DNA of 64,000 nt, taken from assembly GCA_000296795.1 (NCBI GenBank), contig BAFH01000003.1, positions 434,401 to 498,400 on the forward strand, given 5' to 3'. The position numbers and the translations under genes were made by a program. This document shows positions 13,435 through 28,528 of this stretch, piece after piece. Origin of the DNA: Candidatus Jettenia caeni. GTDB taxonomy: Bacteria > Planctomycetota > Brocadiia > Brocadiales > Brocadiaceae. The notes below the pieces were generated by a model. It saw nothing but the letters and a program-made list of their open reading frames with translations, was not told the origin of the DNA and did not search any database. Each line of letters opens with the position of its first letter. Position 1 is the first letter of the stretch.

Positions 13435-14585
13435 GGCTTTGTTGCACAAAGCCGGATAAATATCTGATATACTAAGAGAATAAGGGAAAGAGTACCATAA
13501 ATTATTTTGTAGGATAAGTATATCAGTATGAAGCAACAGAAACGGGACGTAAAGAAACTAGCAGGAACAGATAAAAGGCCGCTCCAAGAACAGAAAAAGA
13601 AGAAATCAAAGAAGGACTACCGGGTAAGAAACTGGTCAGAGTATACAGAGGCATTAAGACAAAGAGGGTCTCTTGATGTATGGATAGATGAGGGGGTACA
13701 AGAGAAATGGAATGCAGAGCCAACGGGCCAAAGAGGGTCTCCCCCTACGTATAGTGATCTGGCCATAACATCAACGCTTCAGTTGGGTATCGTATTTCAT
13801 CAAAGACTTCGTCAAACAGAAGGATTAGTCAAATCACTGTTTCGGCTCATGAATATCCCTCTGAAGGTTCCTGATTATTCAACCCTGTCTCGAAGAGGTG
13901 AAACAGTGGGAATTTCTTTAGCGAAAGAGAAGAAAGAGAATCTGGTATTAGTCCTTGATAGCAGTGGGTTAAAGGTCTATGGGGAAGGGGAATGGAAGGT
14001 AAGACAGCATGGATATACCAAGAGAAGAACATGGAGAAAGATTCATTTGTCCATTACTCCTGATGGAGAGATAAGAGCACAAGAGCTTACCGAGAATAGT
14101 ACTGGTGATTCAGAGGTAGTAGATAAGCTTCTAAGCCAGGAAGAGTCAAGGATTGATACCTTTGCCGGTGATGGCTCCTATGATAAGAGGAAGGTCTATG
14201 AGAGTTGTAAGAGAAGAGGGATTCTCAGAATACTTATTCCTCCGAGGAAGGATGCAAAGATATGGCAGCATGGCAACTGCAGTACAGAGCCACATGTCCG
14301 AGATGAGACGATAAGGCATATCAGAAGAACTTCCCTAAGACAGTGGAAAGAGCGTGTTGGTTACCACGTCCGCTCTCTGGTTGAGAATGCGATATTTCGA
14401 TTCAAAACCATCTTTGGCGATAGGCTTTATGCCAGAAATCTTGCTCAACAAAGAACAGAAGTAGGTATCAAGGCATCTGTTTTAAACCGTATGATGAAAT
14501 TAGGAATGCCGGAAAGTTATGCGATCTCATAAATTGCATACTACAGGGAAAAACTGCTTTTTTATCGGATTTGTGCAACAAAGCC
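13435..14585 (+). mobile_element. IS5 family, IS903-type insertion sequence, copy A
   Basis: A 1151-bp element with terminal inverted repeats GGCTTTGTTGCACAAA at both ends, closely resembling the GGCTTTGTTG ends of IS903. It is flanked by 9-bp direct repeats GGAAAATTG (13426-13434 and 14586-14594), the target duplication length expected for IS903-type elements. The intact duplication shows a simple insertion with no rearrangement at its ends afterwards. An almost identical copy lies in the opposite orientation at 24218-25368. Confidence 0.95.
13528..14532 (+). CDS. IS5/IS903-type DDE transposase, copy A
   Basis: A 334-residue transposase inside IS copy A, starting after a short basic N terminus. 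The DDE triad can be placed at the Asp of VLDSSGLKVYG, the Asp of FAGDGSYDKRKVYE, and the Glu of SLVENAIFRFK followed by the Arg/Lys spacing of the IS5 group. Length is normal and there is no frameshift, so it is probably active. It differs from the second copy by at least two bases in the coding region, one silent near 13690 and one changing Arg to Cys near codon 321. Confidence 0.95.
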   Translation: MKQQKRDVKKLAGTDKRPLQEQKKKKSKKDYRVRNWSEYTEALRQRGSLDVWIDEGVQEKWNAEPTGQRGSPPTYSDLAITSTLQLGIVFHQRLRQTEGLVKSLFRLMNIPLKVPDYSTLSRRGETVGISLAKEKKENLVLVLDSSGLKVYGEGEWKVRQHGYTKRRTWRKIHLSITPDGEIRAQELTENSTGDSEVVDKLLSQEESRIDTFAGDGSYDKRKVYESCKRRGILRILIPPRKDAKIWQHGNCSTEPHVRDETIRHIRRTSLRQWKERVGYHVRSLVENAIFRFKTIFGDRLYARNLAQQRTEVGIKASVLNRMMKLGMPESYAIS

Positions 14586-22077: not shown

Positions 22078-23913
22078 TTATGGAGCTACCCATAGCTTGT
22101 GGGAAATCTCAAATACCGTTAGAGCAGCCACAAGGGTTTCCCAGTTCTCCTTTCCTGAAAAATGCTGATTCAGAAGGGTTTCAACCGTTTCCCCGTTGAG
22201 ATAGGTCCGGAATGCAGCCTTAGGGTTGTATACAATGTCGGTAATGGTATTTCGCATCTCTTCCCGAATCCATCGGGAGTAGTAGCTCGTCGGGACCTCA
22301 GCAGGGCCGCGATAGGCAAGTCCCAGCCGTTGATACCCCCTCTGTTTAATTCCCCGGTAGTATTTTATTGCATTGACCTTCCAGGGAGGCGCCGATAAGG
22401 GGATAAGATTCTTTGCATAAGGAAAATCCAGGATTTGCGGACAAAGTCTCCTGATCAGATCAATTTGTATTCTGTTGGTTATTCGCTCAGAGATAGGAAT
22501 AGCGGCAACAGCTTCTATCCATTGATGATCTAAGTAGGGAAAATAGACATCTACGCTGGGACGAACGGTTAAGATTCCCTTATTAAGGAATTTTCGGCAG
22601 CGCTCGTGGAGATAAAGATAATCCATGACGGATGCGAAAGAAGAATCTTGAGAAGTGTATCCTGAAAGAATGGTATTTATATGTTCTTCAGGGGCGCGAA
22701 GGCCGAGGGTTCGAAACTCTTGTTTCCATAGTTGTTCCAGATATCGGGGTCTTTTTTTACCCAACATCCTTTGCTTTAGGAGTTTTTGTACGGTAGTAAA
22801 ATTACTGATAGTAAGATCCTTCGGAGTGGCCCAGAAACTACGAATAAATTCTCCACCAATTCCATGAACTACAGCGTCAAATGAAGGATGAGAGTAAAGG
22901 ATTTGACAAGTATGACTATGGAGGGTGGCCATTATTCCGCCCTGATGAAGCACCATAGGAGTGAGCCATTCGCTTAATGCGCGGGGGTCTGTCAATTCAA
23001 AGGAGTGTTGCACTCCCGTTTGGTTTGCTAGCTGTTTAGCAAGCACAACATCTGTGCTGTTAGGTTGACCACTCGTATGGGTGAAAAATGATAATTTTTG
23101 ATTGGCAGCAGCCGCCAATATGCATCGTGAGTCCAGTCCGCCTGTCATGGCAATAGCGCAGTTCAAGTCTGATCGGGTGGAACGCCTGACAGCTATTTTG
23201 AGAATATTCTCCAGTTCATCCAGTCTCCGTTTATCGTACCTTCCATGAGGTTGTATATGATCCAGATGCCAATATTGTTCGATATGTACTGTGGTGTCCT
23301 TATACGTAAGATAACTAGCGGGTGGTAAGATATAGATGTCTTTAAAAAGCGTTTTTTCACCAAGGATGTATTCATAGCTGAGAAGATCTGCAAAACCCTC
23401 CACATCGATTTCTCTGGGTAGCATACCAGTTGCCATGATTCTTGCGAGCATTGATGCAAAGACAAGGGCGCCATTCCGCGCCCCCCAGAATAGGGGGCGT
23501 TGACCAAATTTATCGTTTGCCAAAACCATACGGCGGTTTTTTCCATCCCACCATGCTACATTGAAGCTACCGTTTATTTTCCTTAAGCAATCAATTCCCG
23601 ACCTGAGATAGTGTTCGAGCAATAAAGTTGCCCCATCATGCTCAATAAGATCTTCTCTGCCAAGATCGTTATTATCACGATAGATGATACCATCAAAAAC
23701 ACACCATAGACCATTCGATGCGTCTTCGGCGAAGTATATTGATCCGCCAGTTCTTGAAGGGTGAATCGTTCCAAGACCAGCATGGCCCTCCTGGGCAACC
23801 CAGTGATATTTGACTGATGATTCCGGAGATGGAATAGCTTTGAGCATTCTATTGAGTATATCAGTAGGATCGGAAACTCCATTGTGTGCTGCAAATCCAT
23901 GAATACCACTCAT
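22078..23913 (-). CDS. Asparagine synthetase B homologue lacking the Cys2 nucleophile
   Basis: 611 residues in two domains: Ntn-type glutaminase (about 1-215) and an ATP-pyrophosphatase synthetase domain (about 240-600) with the PP-loop TGGLDSR. AsnB enzymes begin MCGI, the Cys being the glutamine-hydrolysing nucleophile. Here the protein starts MSGIHGF, with AGT for the expected TGT, so it should not make ammonia from glutamine by the normal route. It could use free ammonia, or belong to an amide-forming branch such as beta-lactam-synthetase-like or natural-product/polysaccharide amidotransferases. It stands alone between IS copies; no biosynthetic partners are adjacent. Confidence 0.88.
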   Translation of the reverse strand: MSGIHGFAAHNGVSDPTDILNRMLKAIPSPESSVKYHWVAQEGHAGLGTIHPSRTGGSIYFAEDASNGLWCVFDGIIYRDNNDLGREDLIEHDGATLLLEHYLRSGIDCLRKINGSFNVAWWDGKNRRMVLANDKFGQRPLFWGARNGALVFASMLARIMATGMLPREIDVEGFADLLSYEYILGEKTLFKDIYILPPASYLTYKDTTVHIEQYWHLDHIQPHGRYDKRRLDELENILKIAVRRSTRSDLNCAIAMTGGLDSRCILAAAANQKLSFFTHTSGQPNSTDVVLAKQLANQTGVQHSFELTDPRALSEWLTPMVLHQGGIMATLHSHTCQILYSHPSFDAVVHGIGGEFIRSFWATPKDLTISNFTTVQKLLKQRMLGKKRPRYLEQLWKQEFRTLGLRAPEEHINTILSGYTSQDSSFASVMDYLYLHERCRKFLNKGILTVRPSVDVYFPYLDHQWIEAVAAIPISERITNRIQIDLIRRLCPQILDFPYAKNLIPLSAPPWKVNAIKYYRGIKQRGYQRLGLAYRGPAEVPTSYYSRWIREEMRNTITDIVYNPKAAFRTYLNGETVETLLNQHFSGKENWETLVAALTVFEISHKLWVAP

Positions 23914-24102
23914 ATTTGATCCTCCATAATCTTATAGTAGTGAAGAAAATCAATAAATATCGGGATCTTATTGGGTTTATTGAGTTACTAACTAAATATC
24001 AAAAAATGTACCATACAGAGAGAAAACTATTTGAATTTAAATTTTTACTTCAGATTGAATGGTATTTGGTGATAAAAGAGCTATTATTACAGGAAGGAGA
24101 AA

Positions 24103-24217: not shown

Positions 24218-25368
24218 GGCTTTGTTGCACAAATCCGATAAAAAAGCAGTTTTTCCCTGTAGTATGCAATTTATGAGATCGCATAACTTTCCGGCATTCC
24301 TAATTTCATCATACAGTTTAAAACAGATGCCTTGATACCTACTTCTGTTCTTTGTTGAGCAAGATTTCTGGCATAAAGCCTATCGCCAAAGATGGTTTTG
24401 AATCGAAATATCGCATTCTCAACCAGAGAGCGGACGTGGTAACCAACACGCTCTTTCCACTGTCTTAGGGAAGTTCTTCTGATATGCCTTATCGTCTCAT
24501 CTCGGACATGTGGCTCTGTACTGCAGTTGCCATGCTGCCATATCTTTGCATCCTTCCTCGGAGGAATAAGTATTCTGAGAATCCCTCTTCTCTTACAACT
24601 CTCATAGACCTTCCTCTTATCATAGGAGCCATCACCGGCAAAGGTATCAATCCTTGACTCTTCCTGGCTTAGAAGCTTATCTACTACCTCTGAATCACCA
24701 GTACTATTCTCGGTAAGCTCTTGTGCTCTTATCTCTCCATCAGGAGTAATGGACAAATGAATCTTTCTCCATGTTCTTCTCTTGGTATATCCATGCTGTC
24801 TTACCTTCCATTCCCCTTCCCCATAGACCTTTAACCCACTGCTATCAAGGACTAATACCAGATTCTCTTTCTTCTCTTTCGCTAAAGAAATTCCCACTGT
24901 TTCACCTCTTCGAGACAGGGTTGAATAATCAGGAACCTTCAGAGGGATATTCATGAGCCGAAACAGTGATTTGACTAATCCTTCTGTTTGACGAAGTCTT
25001 TGATGAAATACGATACCCAACTGAAGCGTTGATGTTATGGCCAGATCACTATACGTAGGGGGAGACCCTCTTTGGCCCGTTGGCTCTGCATTCCATTTCT
25101 CTTGTACCCCCTCGTCTATCCATACATCAAGAGACCCTCTTTGTCTTAATGCCTCTGTATACTCTGACCAGTTTCTTACCCGGTAGTCCTTCTTTGATTT
25201 CTTCTTTTTCTGTTCTTGGAGCGGCCTTTTATCTGTTCCTGCTAGTTTCTTTACGTCCCGTTTCTGTTGCTTCATACTGATATACTTATCCTACAAAATA
25301 ATTTATGGTACTCTTTCCCTTATTCTCTTAGTATATCAGATATTTATCCGGCTTTGTGCAACAAAGCC
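24218..25368 (-). mobile_element. IS5 family, IS903-type insertion sequence, copy B
   Basis: 1151 bp, the same length as copy A and in the opposite orientation. Ends are GGCTTTGTTGCACAAA inverted repeats, and the flanking 9-bp direct repeat is ATAATAAAC (24209-24217 and 25369-25377). Because each copy has its own matching target duplication, they inserted independently and the DNA between them has not been inverted by recombination between the copies since. Confidence 0.95.
24271..25275 (-). CDS. IS5/IS903-type DDE transposase, copy B
   Basis: 334 residues, identical to copy A except Cys in place of Arg near the C terminus (LNCMMKLGMP). The DDE residues described for copy A are unchanged. 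This substitution is outside the catalytic core, so the copy may still be active. Confidence 0.95.
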   Translation of the reverse strand: MKQQKRDVKKLAGTDKRPLQEQKKKKSKKDYRVRNWSEYTEALRQRGSLDVWIDEGVQEKWNAEPTGQRGSPPTYSDLAITSTLQLGIVFHQRLRQTEGLVKSLFRLMNIPLKVPDYSTLSRRGETVGISLAKEKKENLVLVLDSSGLKVYGEGEWKVRQHGYTKRRTWRKIHLSITPDGEIRAQELTENSTGDSEVVDKLLSQEESRIDTFAGDGSYDKRKVYESCKRRGILRILIPPRKDAKIWQHGNCSTEPHVRDETIRHIRRTSLRQWKERVGYHVRSLVENAIFRFKTIFGDRLYARNLAQQRTEVGIKASVLNCMMKLGMPESYAIS

Positions 25369-25609: not shown

Positions 25610-26020
25610 ATGTCTGACAGAAAGAAATGTATTTTTATAAGCGATATGCATATTGGAGCGAAAAGGGTTCCGAGAGAGAGCCGTTACGCTTACGATTGGC
25701 TTAGCCCGTCAAGAACGAAGATGCTTGAGGATTTTTTAAGATATTTAGCAACAGTTAAGGATATTGAAGAGATAGTTCTCTTAGGTGATATTATGGATAA
25801 TTGGGTTTATCCTGTTTATGAAATTCCTCCTACATTTGAGGAGATTATCGAATCTCCGGATAATAAACATGTTTTTGCTGCTCTTAAAGATCTTGCTGCC
25901 CGTAAAAAGGTTATCTATATGCCCGGTAATCATGATATGTTAATTACGAAAGAATGTGTAGACGAAAAATTTCCGGGTATTACTTTTGATGGAAATATAA
26001 CACATAGAAATATCTTGTAA
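25610..26020 (+). pseudogene. Metallophosphoesterase, C-terminally truncated
   Basis: The 136 residues hold the first half of a calcineurin-like phosphoesterase: SDMHIG (DxH), LLGDIMDNW (GDxxD) and MPGNHD (GNHD). The later histidine motifs (H and GHxH) that complete the two-metal site are missing because the frame stops at TAA after HRNIL. Family members of the LpxH/YbbF-like group run to 230-300 residues. A good GGGAGG ribosome site precedes the ATG, so the start is intact and the 3' part has been lost. The sequence after the stop shows no continuation in other frames that I can see. Confidence 0.7.
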
Positions 26021-26893: not shown

Positions 26894-28528
26894 ATGGAAA
26901 TGAAAAACACTCTTGGCAACTACCTCATTGAGCAACTCTATAATTGTGGAGCCCGTCATGTCTTCGGTGTTGCAGGCGATTATGTGCTTCGCTTTTTCGA
27001 TGACCTCGTTCATAGCAAGCTTAACGTAATCTGCACCTGTGATGAGCAGGGGGCAGGATATGCGGCAGATGCTTATGCCCGCTTGAATGGACTAGGGGTT
27101 GTATGTATTACCTACTGCGTTGGCGGGTTAAAGGTAGTTAATCCGGTAGCTCAGGCGTATGCTGAAAAATCCCCCGTCGTTGTTATAAGCGGAGCGCCCG
27201 GGATCAAAGAACGCAAAAAAAATCCGATGCTTCATCATAAAGTGCGCGACTTTGATACACAAAAGAAGATATTTGATGAAGTCACGGTTGCTTCTACCGT
27301 ATTAAGTGATCCAGGAACCGCTCCTCGCGAGATTGATCGTGTTCTGAATGCAGCTCAACGCTATAAACGCCCGGTCTATATCGAACTGCCCCGGGATATG
27401 ACCTCTGAGCAAGTTACCCATCAGTATGAATTCCGCGAGATGCAAGAAAAAAGTGATCCTGTTGCTCTTCAGGAAGCAGTTACAGAAGCTATAACTATGA
27501 TACATGCAGCGAAAAAACCGGTTATCATCGCTGGTGTTGAATTGCAGAGGTTCGGGTTACAAAGTGAACTCGTAAAATTCATAGAAAAAACAAATATACC
27601 TGTTACATCGTTGCTTCTCAGTAAATCGGTGATCAGTGAACGACATCCTCTGTATCTGGGGTTATATGAAGGCGCAATTGGGCATGATTTTGTCCGCGAA
27701 TATGTTGAATCCTCAGATTGTCTGGTATTGCTGGGAGCTCTTTTGACAGATATTAATCTTGGTGCCTTTACGGCACATCTTGATCAGGGGAGAATGATTT
27801 ATGTCACGAGTGAAAAAACCGCTATTCGTCACCACAATTATGAGAATATCTATCTGCAAGATTTCATGTATGAGTTGATGAGAGCCAATATTAAACGTCA
27901 GGAGCTGAAAGGTATTCAGCATCAGGAGGTTCAGCCGTTTTCACCGGTAAAAGGGCAAAAGGTTACCGTTCAGCGATTATTCCAGTGCTTGAACTCATTC
28001 CTGACCGATGATACGGTTGTTATAGCAGACGTTGGCGATGCCTTGGTTGGCGGTTCTGATCTTGTTGTTCACCGCCGCACCGAATTTATATCTCCGGCAT
28101 ACTATCTTTCGCTTGGTTTTGCAGTGCCTGCAAGTATAGGAGCCCAATTAGCCAGTCCCTCTCTGCGTCCCTTAGTGTTGGTCGGCGATGGCGCATTTCA
28201 AATGACGGGTATGGAGCTTTCAACCATAGTGAGGTACCATCTTAATCCAATTGTTGTTGTCTTTAATAATTATGGATACGGGATAGAACGTCCTATGATG
28301 GACGGTCCGTTTAATGATTTGCAATTGTGGCAATATAGTCGTATCCCTGAAATAATTGGTGGTGGTAGAGGCTTTATTGTTAAGACTGAAGAACAACTGA
28401 GTGAGGCGCTCGAAGCTGCCGAAAAATATAAGGATGGTTTCTGTATCCTGGATGTCCATCTGGATAAGTATGATATGTCGCCTGCTTTACAGCGACTAAC
28501 AAGCCTGTCTGCGAAGAGAGCACGATAG
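26894..28528 (+). CDS. Thiamine-diphosphate-dependent 2-oxoacid decarboxylase (pyruvate/indolepyruvate decarboxylase type)
   Basis: 544 residues with three typical domains. The N-terminal domain has GVAGDYVLRFFDDL and the conserved Glu in CTCDEQGAGYAADAYARLNG; the catalytic His pair is in MLHHK. The C-terminal domain has the thiamine diphosphate motif GDGAFQMTGMELSTIVRY ending in NN, then GYGIE with the Glu equivalent to Glu473 of Zymomonas pyruvate decarboxylase. The Asp/His-His/Glu set is thus complete, so a non-oxidative decarboxylation of a 2-oxoacid to an aldehyde is expected in the cytoplasm. Substrate (pyruvate, indolepyruvate, phenylpyruvate or branched oxoacids) cannot be decided. 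Apparently monocistronic. Confidence 0.9.
   Translation: MEMKNTLGNYLIEQLYNCGARHVFGVAGDYVLRFFDDLVHSKLNVICTCDEQGAGYAADAYARLNGLGVVCITYCVGGLKVVNPVAQAYAEKSPVVVISGAPGIKERKKNPMLHHKVRDFDTQKKIFDEVTVASTVLSDPGTAPREIDRVLNAAQRYKRPVYIELPRDMTSEQVTHQYEFREMQEKSDPVALQEAVTEAITMIHAAKKPVIIAGVELQRFGLQSELVKFIEKTNIPVTSLLLSKSVISERHPLYLGLYEGAIGHDFVREYVESSDCLVLLGALLTDINLGAFTAHLDQGRMIYVTSEKTAIRHHNYENIYLQDFMYELMRANIKRQELKGIQHQEVQPFSPVKGQKVTVQRLFQCLNSFLTDDTVVIADVGDALVGGSDLVVHRRTEFISPAYYLSLGFAVPASIGAQLASPSLRPLVLVGDGAFQMTGMELSTIVRYHLNPIVVVFNNYGYGIERPMMDGPFNDLQLWQYSRIPEIIGGGRGFIVKTEEQLSEALEAAEKYKDGFCILDVHLDKYDMSPALQRLTSLSAKRAR

What the first reader, a model, noticed from the sequence alone, without database searches (positions are those of the whole stretch)
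22078..23913. Asparagine synthetase homologue with Ser in place of the Cys2 nucleophile
The N terminus is MSGIHGF, not MCGI. One base (TGT to AGT) separates Ser from Cys. The synthetase PP-loop TGGLDSR is intact, so it may use ammonia, or form amide bonds with a non-glutamine donor as in beta-lactam-synthetase-like proteins.
Basis: partly seen in the sequence, partly recalled or inferred. Interest (0 to 1): 0.5.

Follow-up and report, generated by a model that had tools for sequence, protein, structure and literature searches.

The report
Cysteine-less asparagine-synthetase relative, not glutamine-using
The gene makes a relative of asparagine synthetase whose glutamine-cutting half has lost its working parts, not just one cysteine; it belongs to an old, widespread and little-studied branch of such proteins in bacteria and archaea, so its serine is unlikely to be a substitute nucleophile.

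Summary
The ORF (22078-23913, minus strand, 611 aa, MSGIHGF..., codon AGT) is real, has a good Shine-Dalgarno sequence, and is under purifying selection. It is neither a sequencing error nor a recent Cys-to-Ser change. The host is a Candidatus Jettenia species (anammox Planctomycete). All four orthologues have Ser2 (AGT), but the 61%-identical paralogues have Ser or Gly, and most deeper relatives have Pro, so Ser2 is probably not a catalytic replacement. The glutamine pocket of the GATase domain is lost too: the E. coli AsnB residues C1, R49, N74, E76 and D98 are changed in 7 of 7 close homologues. On trees the protein falls in a deep clade (99.8% SH-aLRT) with no Cys2 in any of 21 rows. All 21 carry an Arg directly after the ATP PP-loop (GGxDSR), seen in none of the Cys2 proteins examined. 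The clade spans Planctomycetes, Desulfatirhabdium, Methanoperedens and haloarchaea, often beside exosortase or polysaccharide genes. The asparagine-synthetase active site is remodelled (GEGSDE to GIGGEF) while the PP-loop is intact. Best reading: an ATP-consuming amide-forming ligase that takes its nitrogen from an amine or ammonia, not glutamine. Substrate unknown. It meets no named family tested.

The parts
22078..23913 (-). CDS, 611 aa: Cys2-less AsnB homologue of the GGxDSR clade
23921..23925 (-). Shine-Dalgarno GGAGG, 7 bases upstream of the ATG
   Evidence: also in the other Jettenia orthologues and Loosdrechtia
23908..23910 (-). Codon 2, AGT = Ser, in the place of the Cys nucleophile
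   Evidence: AGT in 4 of 4 orthologues
23314..23910 (-). Glutaminase-like (GATase_6/GATase_7) domain, residues 2-200, with C1, R49, N74, E76, D98 of E. coli AsnB replaced by S, H, D, I, G
22081..23241 (-). Asn_synthase (PP-loop ATP pyrophosphatase) domain, residues 225-611
23125..23145 (-). PP-loop TGGLDSR, residues 257-263; Arg263 is the clade mark
22846..22866 (-). HGIGGEF, residues 350-356, remodelled counterpart of the AsnB GEGSDE motif (E348 to Ile352, D351 to Glu355)

Best explanation
It is a working, vertically inherited member of a deep Cys2-less branch of the asparagine-synthetase superfamily marked by GGxDSR at the PP-loop. Shown: Cys2 and the other glutamine-pocket residues are missing, the PP-loop is intact, the predicted fold is that of AsnB, and the gene is under purifying selection in both halves. 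Inferred: the N-terminal domain is kept as a scaffold and does not hydrolyse glutamine; the C-terminal domain adenylates a carboxylate with ATP, releases pyrophosphate, and passes the acyl group to an amine (or free ammonia) that binds directly, giving an amide. The replaced AsnB residues (E348, D351, K429) mean that the carboxylate is probably not aspartate. For the clade as a whole, gene neighbours suggest a sugar or glycan carboxylate or amine at exosortase/polysaccharide loci; for the window gene itself the substrate is open.
For: Residue map to E. coli AsnB: five GATase residues changed in 7 of 7 close homologues. Cys-less clade: 20 of 55 rows in the first tree, SH-aLRT 99, and 21 of 49 in the second, 99.8, none with Cys2. 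GGxDSR in 20 of 20 clade rows, 0 of 27 Cys2 rows and 0 of 8 other Cys-less rows. In a further eight plasmid proteins picked from the hit list by annotation and coverage, 5 of 5 with DSR lack Cys2 and 3 of 3 without DSR have it. PP-loop GG.D kept in 20 of 20. Model pLDDT 81, pTM 0.86; best fold matches TsnB9 (Z 30.5, 525 aligned, rmsd 3.0), AsnB (26.9, 451, 3.4), beta-lactam synthetase (26.7, 426, 3.1). dN/dS against Loosdrechtia 0.12 over the gene, 0.17 in the GATase part, 0.10 in the synthetase part. Precedents named in a paper: AS-like enzymes that make lactams, isopeptides and nitriles, one of which also uses ammonia (passages).
Against: No substrate, product or partner is known. The Lys of AsnB position 449 is not kept across the clade: K in 6 of 20 rows in a badly aligned stretch; the paralogues read YTHDPFP where the window has YAKNLIP. 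Residue D98 is alignment-dependent: an Asp lies one position away in the window protein (Asn in Loosdrechtia). N74 to D also occurs in 4 of 27 Cys2 proteins, so that change alone is not disabling. The window gene has no biosynthetic operon around it. The link between the paralogue's two neighbours and FemAB-type transferases is only a sub-threshold Pfam hit (19.7 bits, cut-off 22) and a failed profile comparison.
Confidence: 0.6

Rival explanations
1. Ser2 acts as an N-terminal nucleophile in place of Cys, so the enzyme is still a glutaminase or an amidase with another donor.
For: Ser2 follows Met1 and would become N-terminal after Met removal; it is kept in 4 of 4 orthologues. N-terminal Ser nucleophiles exist in the Ntn-hydrolase superfamily (recalled).
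Against: Gly in one of three 61% paralogues; Pro, Val or Thr in the rest of the clade apart from one further Ser. R49, N74, E76 and the aligned D98 position are changed as well.
Confidence: 0.05
2. Ammonia-dependent asparagine synthetase: dead GATase, normal aspartate amidation.
For: PP-loop intact; best NCBIfam model is the asparagine synthase one (129.8 bits); an anammox cell has free ammonium (recalled).
Against: Far below that model's cut-off of 267.1. E348, D351 and K429 of AsnB replaced. The genome already has three Cys2 AsnB-type proteins.
Confidence: 0.06
3. Cyclase of the beta-lactam-synthetase or lasso-peptide kind, forming an intramolecular amide.
For: Same fold as beta-lactam and carbapenam synthetases (Z 26.7 and 23.0); those proteins work without a glutaminase (recalled).
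Against: AsnB is as close in fold (26.9) and TsnB9 closer. Lasso cyclase model 103 bits against 525; no lasso B2-type Transglut_core3 in the genome (the control rang in only 2 of 14 genomes). The nearby TPP enzyme is a keto-acid decarboxylase by best match. No precursor gene was sought beyond ORF lists.
Confidence: 0.06
4. A non-catalytic pseudoenzyme in which both sites are dead and the protein binds ATP or a partner.
For: Both the GATase residues and several synthetase residues differ from AsnB; it stands alone in the genome, without pathway neighbours.
Against: PP-loop GG.D kept in all 20 clade rows and dN/dS against Loosdrechtia lowest in the synthetase part.
Confidence: 0.17
5. Sequencing error or a recent point mutation of a normal Cys2 AsnB.
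For: AGT and TGT differ by one base.
Against: AGT in four genomes; AGC or GGC in the paralogues; whole clade without Cys2.
Confidence: 0.005

Closest known systems
Asparagine synthetase B (E. coli AsnB, PDB 1ct9; TIGR01536)
   Same: Two-domain architecture, PP-loop SGGxDS, fold (Z 26.9, 451 aligned, rmsd 3.4)
   Different: No Cys, R49, N74, E76 or aligned D98; E348, D351, K429 changed; 129.8 bits against a cut-off of 267.1
TsnB9 hydroxyamidotransferase (PDB 7ylz)
   Same: Highest fold match (Z 30.5, 525 aligned, rmsd 3.0) and best PDB sequence match (E 4.6e-12)
   Different: 14% identical over the fold alignment; takes hydroxylamine from a glutamyl donor according to PMC6133997 (passages), for which the window protein has no evident site
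Beta-lactam synthetase and carbapenam synthetase (PDB 1m1z, 1q15)
   Same: Fold (Z 26.7 and 23.0); synthetases of this kind work without glutamine (recalled)
   Different: 12-14% identity; not shown to share their Tyr-Glu dyad; no pathway partners nearby
WbpS / eps_aminotran_1 (TIGR03108), uronic-acid amidotransferase of polysaccharide and exosortase loci
   Same: Second-best NCBIfam model (113.4 bits); other members of the Cys-less clade lie in exosortase or polysaccharide loci
   Different: Far below the cut-off of 816.9; the window gene has no such neighbours
Lasso-peptide isopeptide cyclases and macrolactam cyclases (NF033535, NF033561)
   Same: AsnB-derived ligases
   Different: 103 bits against 525 and 38.8 against 300; no B2-type protease found in the genome
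'Asparagine synthase-related protein' of haloarchaea (wording of the plasmid records)
   Same: Same clade: no Cys2, DSR at the PP-loop, in 6 of 6 read here
   Different: Low identity to the window protein (22.8, 22.5 and 22.1% where it was itself the query); no specific function assigned in the records seen

Membership tests
Glutamine-dependent asparagine synthetase (AsnB) | N-terminal Cys nucleophile | tested here: not met
   Ser2
Glutamine-dependent asparagine synthetase (AsnB) | Glutamine-pocket residues R49, N74, E76, D98 (recalled roles) | tested here: not met
   H, D, I, G; an Asp sits one position from D98 in the window protein, Asn in Loosdrechtia
Glutamine-dependent asparagine synthetase (AsnB) | PP-loop SGGxDS of the ATP site | tested here: met
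   TGGLDS, then Arg instead of Ser/Ala/Thr
Glutamine-dependent asparagine synthetase (AsnB) | TIGR01536 score above 267.1 | tested here: not met
   129.8 bits
Beta-lactam / carbapenam synthetase | Fold of a Cys-less AsnB homologue | tested here: met
   Z 26.7 and 23.0; a shared fold shows no function
Beta-lactam / carbapenam synthetase | Tyr-Glu catalytic dyad (known to me from a reference title and recall) | tested here: inconclusive
   Residue at the AsnB E348 column is Ile (Thr in the paralogues), not Tyr, but no beta-lactam synthetase was in that alignment
Beta-lactam / carbapenam synthetase | Partner thiamine-diphosphate synthase making the substrate (as in clavulanate, recalled) | tested here: not met
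   The enzyme at 26894-28528 is best matched by indolepyruvate/phenylpyruvate decarboxylase (398 bits, cut-off 554.5) and keto-acid decarboxylase structures; no carboxyethylarginine synthase among the 60 of 149 matches shown
Lasso-peptide cyclase | NF033535 score above 525 | tested here: not met
   103 bits
Lasso-peptide cyclase | B2-type Transglut_core3 protease in the genome | tested here: not met
   0 matches in G000; control rang in 2 of 14 genomes
WbpS / EPS amidotransferase (TIGR03108) | Score above 816.9 | tested here: not met
   113.4 bits
WbpS / EPS amidotransferase (TIGR03108) | Polysaccharide or exosortase neighbourhood | tested here: not met
   None among the window neighbours scanned by Pfam (7 of the ORFs listed) or read as ORFs
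Cys-less GGxDSR clade (named here) | No Cys2, Arg after the PP-loop, groups with the clade on a tree | tested here: met

The most novel reading that the evidence does not exclude
The GGxDSR clade is a separate, uncharacterised enzyme family, spanning bacteria and archaea, in which the glutaminase was dropped early and the synthetase was rebuilt to join carboxylates directly to an amine (amino sugar, amino acid or, in anammox cells, ammonium, hydrazine or hydroxylamine); in exosortase loci it could make the unknown amine-bearing glycan to which sorted proteins are attached.
Probability: 0.2. Interest if true: 0.6.

Novelty: new variant of a known kind. Interest (0 to 1): 0.33.

Why it matters
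Cys-less AsnB relatives are a known source of new amide chemistry. This one marks a whole clade with a simple sequence sign (GGxDSR without Cys2) that automatic annotation blurs: one Cys-less member (L043, MPGLVGI) scores 274.5 bits against the 267.1 cut-off of 'asparagine synthase (glutamine-hydrolyzing)', so it would be named after an activity that its sequence argues against. The presence of several clade members at exosortase and polysaccharide loci makes the clade a candidate for the unknown chemistry of those systems.

Tried and rejected
Sequence error or recent mutation: rejected by four orthologues with AGT.

Beta-lactam pathway by neighbourhood: the Cys-less protein lies within about 3 kb of a thiamine-diphosphate enzyme in 3 of the 4 orthologues read, directly beside it in Loosdrechtia (in the fourth, G002, the contig ends and the enzyme is on another contig); clavulanate clusters pair such genes (recalled). 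Tested and dropped: the enzyme is a keto-acid decarboxylase by best match, and it also occurs in genomes with no match to the window protein, such as G003 and G038.

VimA/FemAB-WbpS module (PMC7468200, passages read): attractive because the 61% paralogue is followed by two paired genes, one with a faint GNAT match, and L053 is followed by a FemAB gene. The paralogue's neighbours do not match L053's FemAB protein by profile comparison and have no NCBIfam hit, so this stays a lead. 4 of 39 relatives have a homologue of those genes, one of them (G003) without any match to the window protein.

Phage and viral origin: 11 phage records match, all under 60% identity and none over 80% of the length; one viral contig matched, MSGIAGE with SGGLDSS, so not of the DSR clade. 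S. clavuligerus pSCL4 was fetched in the hope of a beta-lactam synthetase reference; the stretch holds an MCGF-type protein and was not used. The fold listing shows no lasso cyclase; that is absence from a list only.

Rows dropped: nine entries were skipped (five duplicates, four without a readable start or PP-loop: L066, L069, L071, L085), and two of its ten 'other Cys-less' entries (L024, L093) are start-picking errors, since the residues around the chosen start read VCGI, so they are Cys proteins. In one search eleven rows were removed from the first tree (L087, L015, L066 as partial or long; eight more as near-duplicates or to thin the set) and five haloarchaeal rows added. G253 (matched from position 108) was fetched but its N terminus was not read.

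Full report
What is there. The reading frame at 22078-23913 on the minus strand encodes 611 residues beginning MSGIHGF. A GGAGG sequence sits seven bases before the ATG, and codon 2 is AGT. Pfam finds Asn_synthase (71.9 bits, cut-off 21) and GATase_7 (57.1, cut-off 25).

Orthologues. Among 98 genomes searched, including the window's own, orthologues occur in four: the window's own, two other Jettenia (97 and 96%) and Loosdrechtia (68%). All four have ATG AGT. The three Jettenia genomes also hold a 61% paralogue; its second codon is GGC (Gly), AGC and AGC. Gene order around the window gene is largely kept: OpuC-type transporter, BrkB, OB-fold protein and a keto-acid-decarboxylase-like gene; in G002 the contig ends just past the gene. 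dN/dS is 0.15 to 0.19 within Jettenia and 0.12 against Loosdrechtia (dS 1.76, near saturation); there the GATase part gives 0.17 and the synthetase part 0.10. In the short within-genus comparisons of the window gene the GATase part reaches 0.42, and 0.53 in the paralogue, on few sites. So the gene is maintained, and the GATase part is somewhat less constrained.

The glutaminase half. Aligned to E. coli AsnB (fetched), the residues at C1, R49, N74, E76 and D98 are S, H, D, I, G in the window protein and all five are changed in all 7 close homologues. Their roles in AsnB are recalled, not tested here. Two cautions: N74 to D also occurs in 4 of 27 Cys2 proteins, and an Asp lies one position from the D98 column in the window protein, though Loosdrechtia has Asn there. 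Taken together a working glutaminase is unlikely.

The clade. In a first tree of 55 proteins, 20 rows (Pro2 11, Ser2 7, Gly2 1, Val2 1) split from 35 rows (27 with Cys2) with SH-aLRT 99. In a second tree of 49 rows with five new haloarchaeal proteins, the 21 rows with Arg after the PP-loop form one side of a branch with 99.8 support and none has Cys2. Both are quick trees without bootstrap, and several branches are long; the root is not inferred. The window sub-clade sits on a stem of about 2 changes per column, so its exact sister is unsure. Arg at that place: 20 of 20 clade rows, 0 of 27 Cys2 rows, 0 of 8 other Cys-less rows. Over the wider set of 80 proteins, 20 have the Arg and all 20 lack Cys2. 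Of eight more plasmid proteins chosen from the hit list by coverage and annotation, 5 of 5 with the Arg lack Cys2 and 3 of 3 without it have Cys2. Some clade rows came from searches with an alignment of Cys-less proteins, which favours finding such proteins; the plasmid test is the least affected, though its query too was a clade member. Of the 11 listed places that match at least 580 of 610 profile positions, 10 had their N termini read and none has Cys2.

The synthetase half. The PP-loop GG.D is kept in 20 of 20 clade rows. AsnB E348 is Ile in the window and never Glu or Asp in the 20 rows, against 19 of 27 Cys2 rows with Glu or Asp; D351 is Glu in 14 and Asp in 6; K429 is kept in 5 of 20. 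The AsnB K449 column is poorly aligned and carries no weight here. The AlphaFold2 model (17 rows, pLDDT 81.3, pTM 0.86) matches TsnB9 (Z 30.5, 525 aligned, rmsd 3.0), AsnB (26.9, 451, 3.4), beta-lactam synthetase (26.7, 426, 3.1) and carbapenam synthetase (23.0, 442, 3.5). AsnB and beta-lactam synthetase are tied.

Neighbourhoods of the clade. Polysaccharide export and a glycosyltransferase beside the third Jettenia homologue L039; a polysaccharide flippase beside L051; a FemAB protein after L053; an exosortase near L044; UbiA-type genes beside L108 and L109; by annotation a polysaccharide deacetylase beside L077 and a lipopolysaccharide gene and a glycosyltransferase near L122. Not all fit: L120, L121, L123 and L127 show no clear glycan genes, and the window gene has none. 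So the glycan idea is for the clade and not for this gene.

Mechanism. Shown: the sequence changes, conservation, predicted fold and selection. Inferred: no glutamine use; ATP-dependent activation of a carboxylate other than aspartate; attack by an amine or ammonia. Related AS-like enzymes form lactams, isopeptide bonds and nitriles, and PesC accepts ammonia (PMC13060819, passages); FzmA and TsnB9 handle hydrazine or hydroxylamine from glutamyl donors (PMC6133997, passages). An anammox host makes ammonium, hydrazine or hydroxylamine thinkable as nucleophiles, but nothing here tests it, and the clade is not confined to anammox bacteria.

Known families. All NCBIfam models score below their cut-offs for the window protein. 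It is therefore filed as a new variant of a known kind: a Cys-less AsnB homologue of an unnamed GGxDSR clade. Nine literature searches listed nothing on this clade, in an open-licence library only.

Noticed in passing
13528-14532 (+) and 24271-25275 (-): Two nearly identical IS5-like transposase ORFs (334 aa, one residue apart; family name recalled) in opposite orientation flank the region; neither appears at this place in G001 (L041) or Loosdrechtia (L040).
   Followed up: partly
25610-26020: Short metallophosphoesterase-like ORF (136 aa, 28.1 bits) beside the IS copy, probably a truncated gene.
   Followed up: no
L060:3587-5485, L064, L065:8001-9848, L068: A separate set of Ser2 proteins in Bacillota and Actinomycetota inside the Cys2 part of the tree, with most glutamine-pocket residues kept but, in L060 and L065, an altered PP-loop (SSGVDSS, SSEIEST): Ser2 with a near-intact pocket is the better test of a Ser nucleophile.
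   Followed up: partly
L043:7253-9094: Cys-less MPGLVGI protein passes the TIGR01536 'glutamine-hydrolyzing' cut-off (274.5 against 267.1), a likely misannotation trap.
   Followed up: no
L038:11015-13535: Two related genes (55% identical) follow the 61% paralogue; one has a faint GNAT match below cut-off; homologues in 4 of 39 relatives.
   Followed up: partly
26894-28528: Keto-acid-decarboxylase-like thiamine-diphosphate enzyme, best model TIGR03394 at 398 bits but below its cut-off of 554.5.
   Followed up: partly
L007 (G000:C3:1506754-1506936): Seventh PF00733 place of the genome (23.4 bits over 61 positions), in a locus with a prepilin-like frame; probably a chance or fragmentary match.
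   Followed up: no
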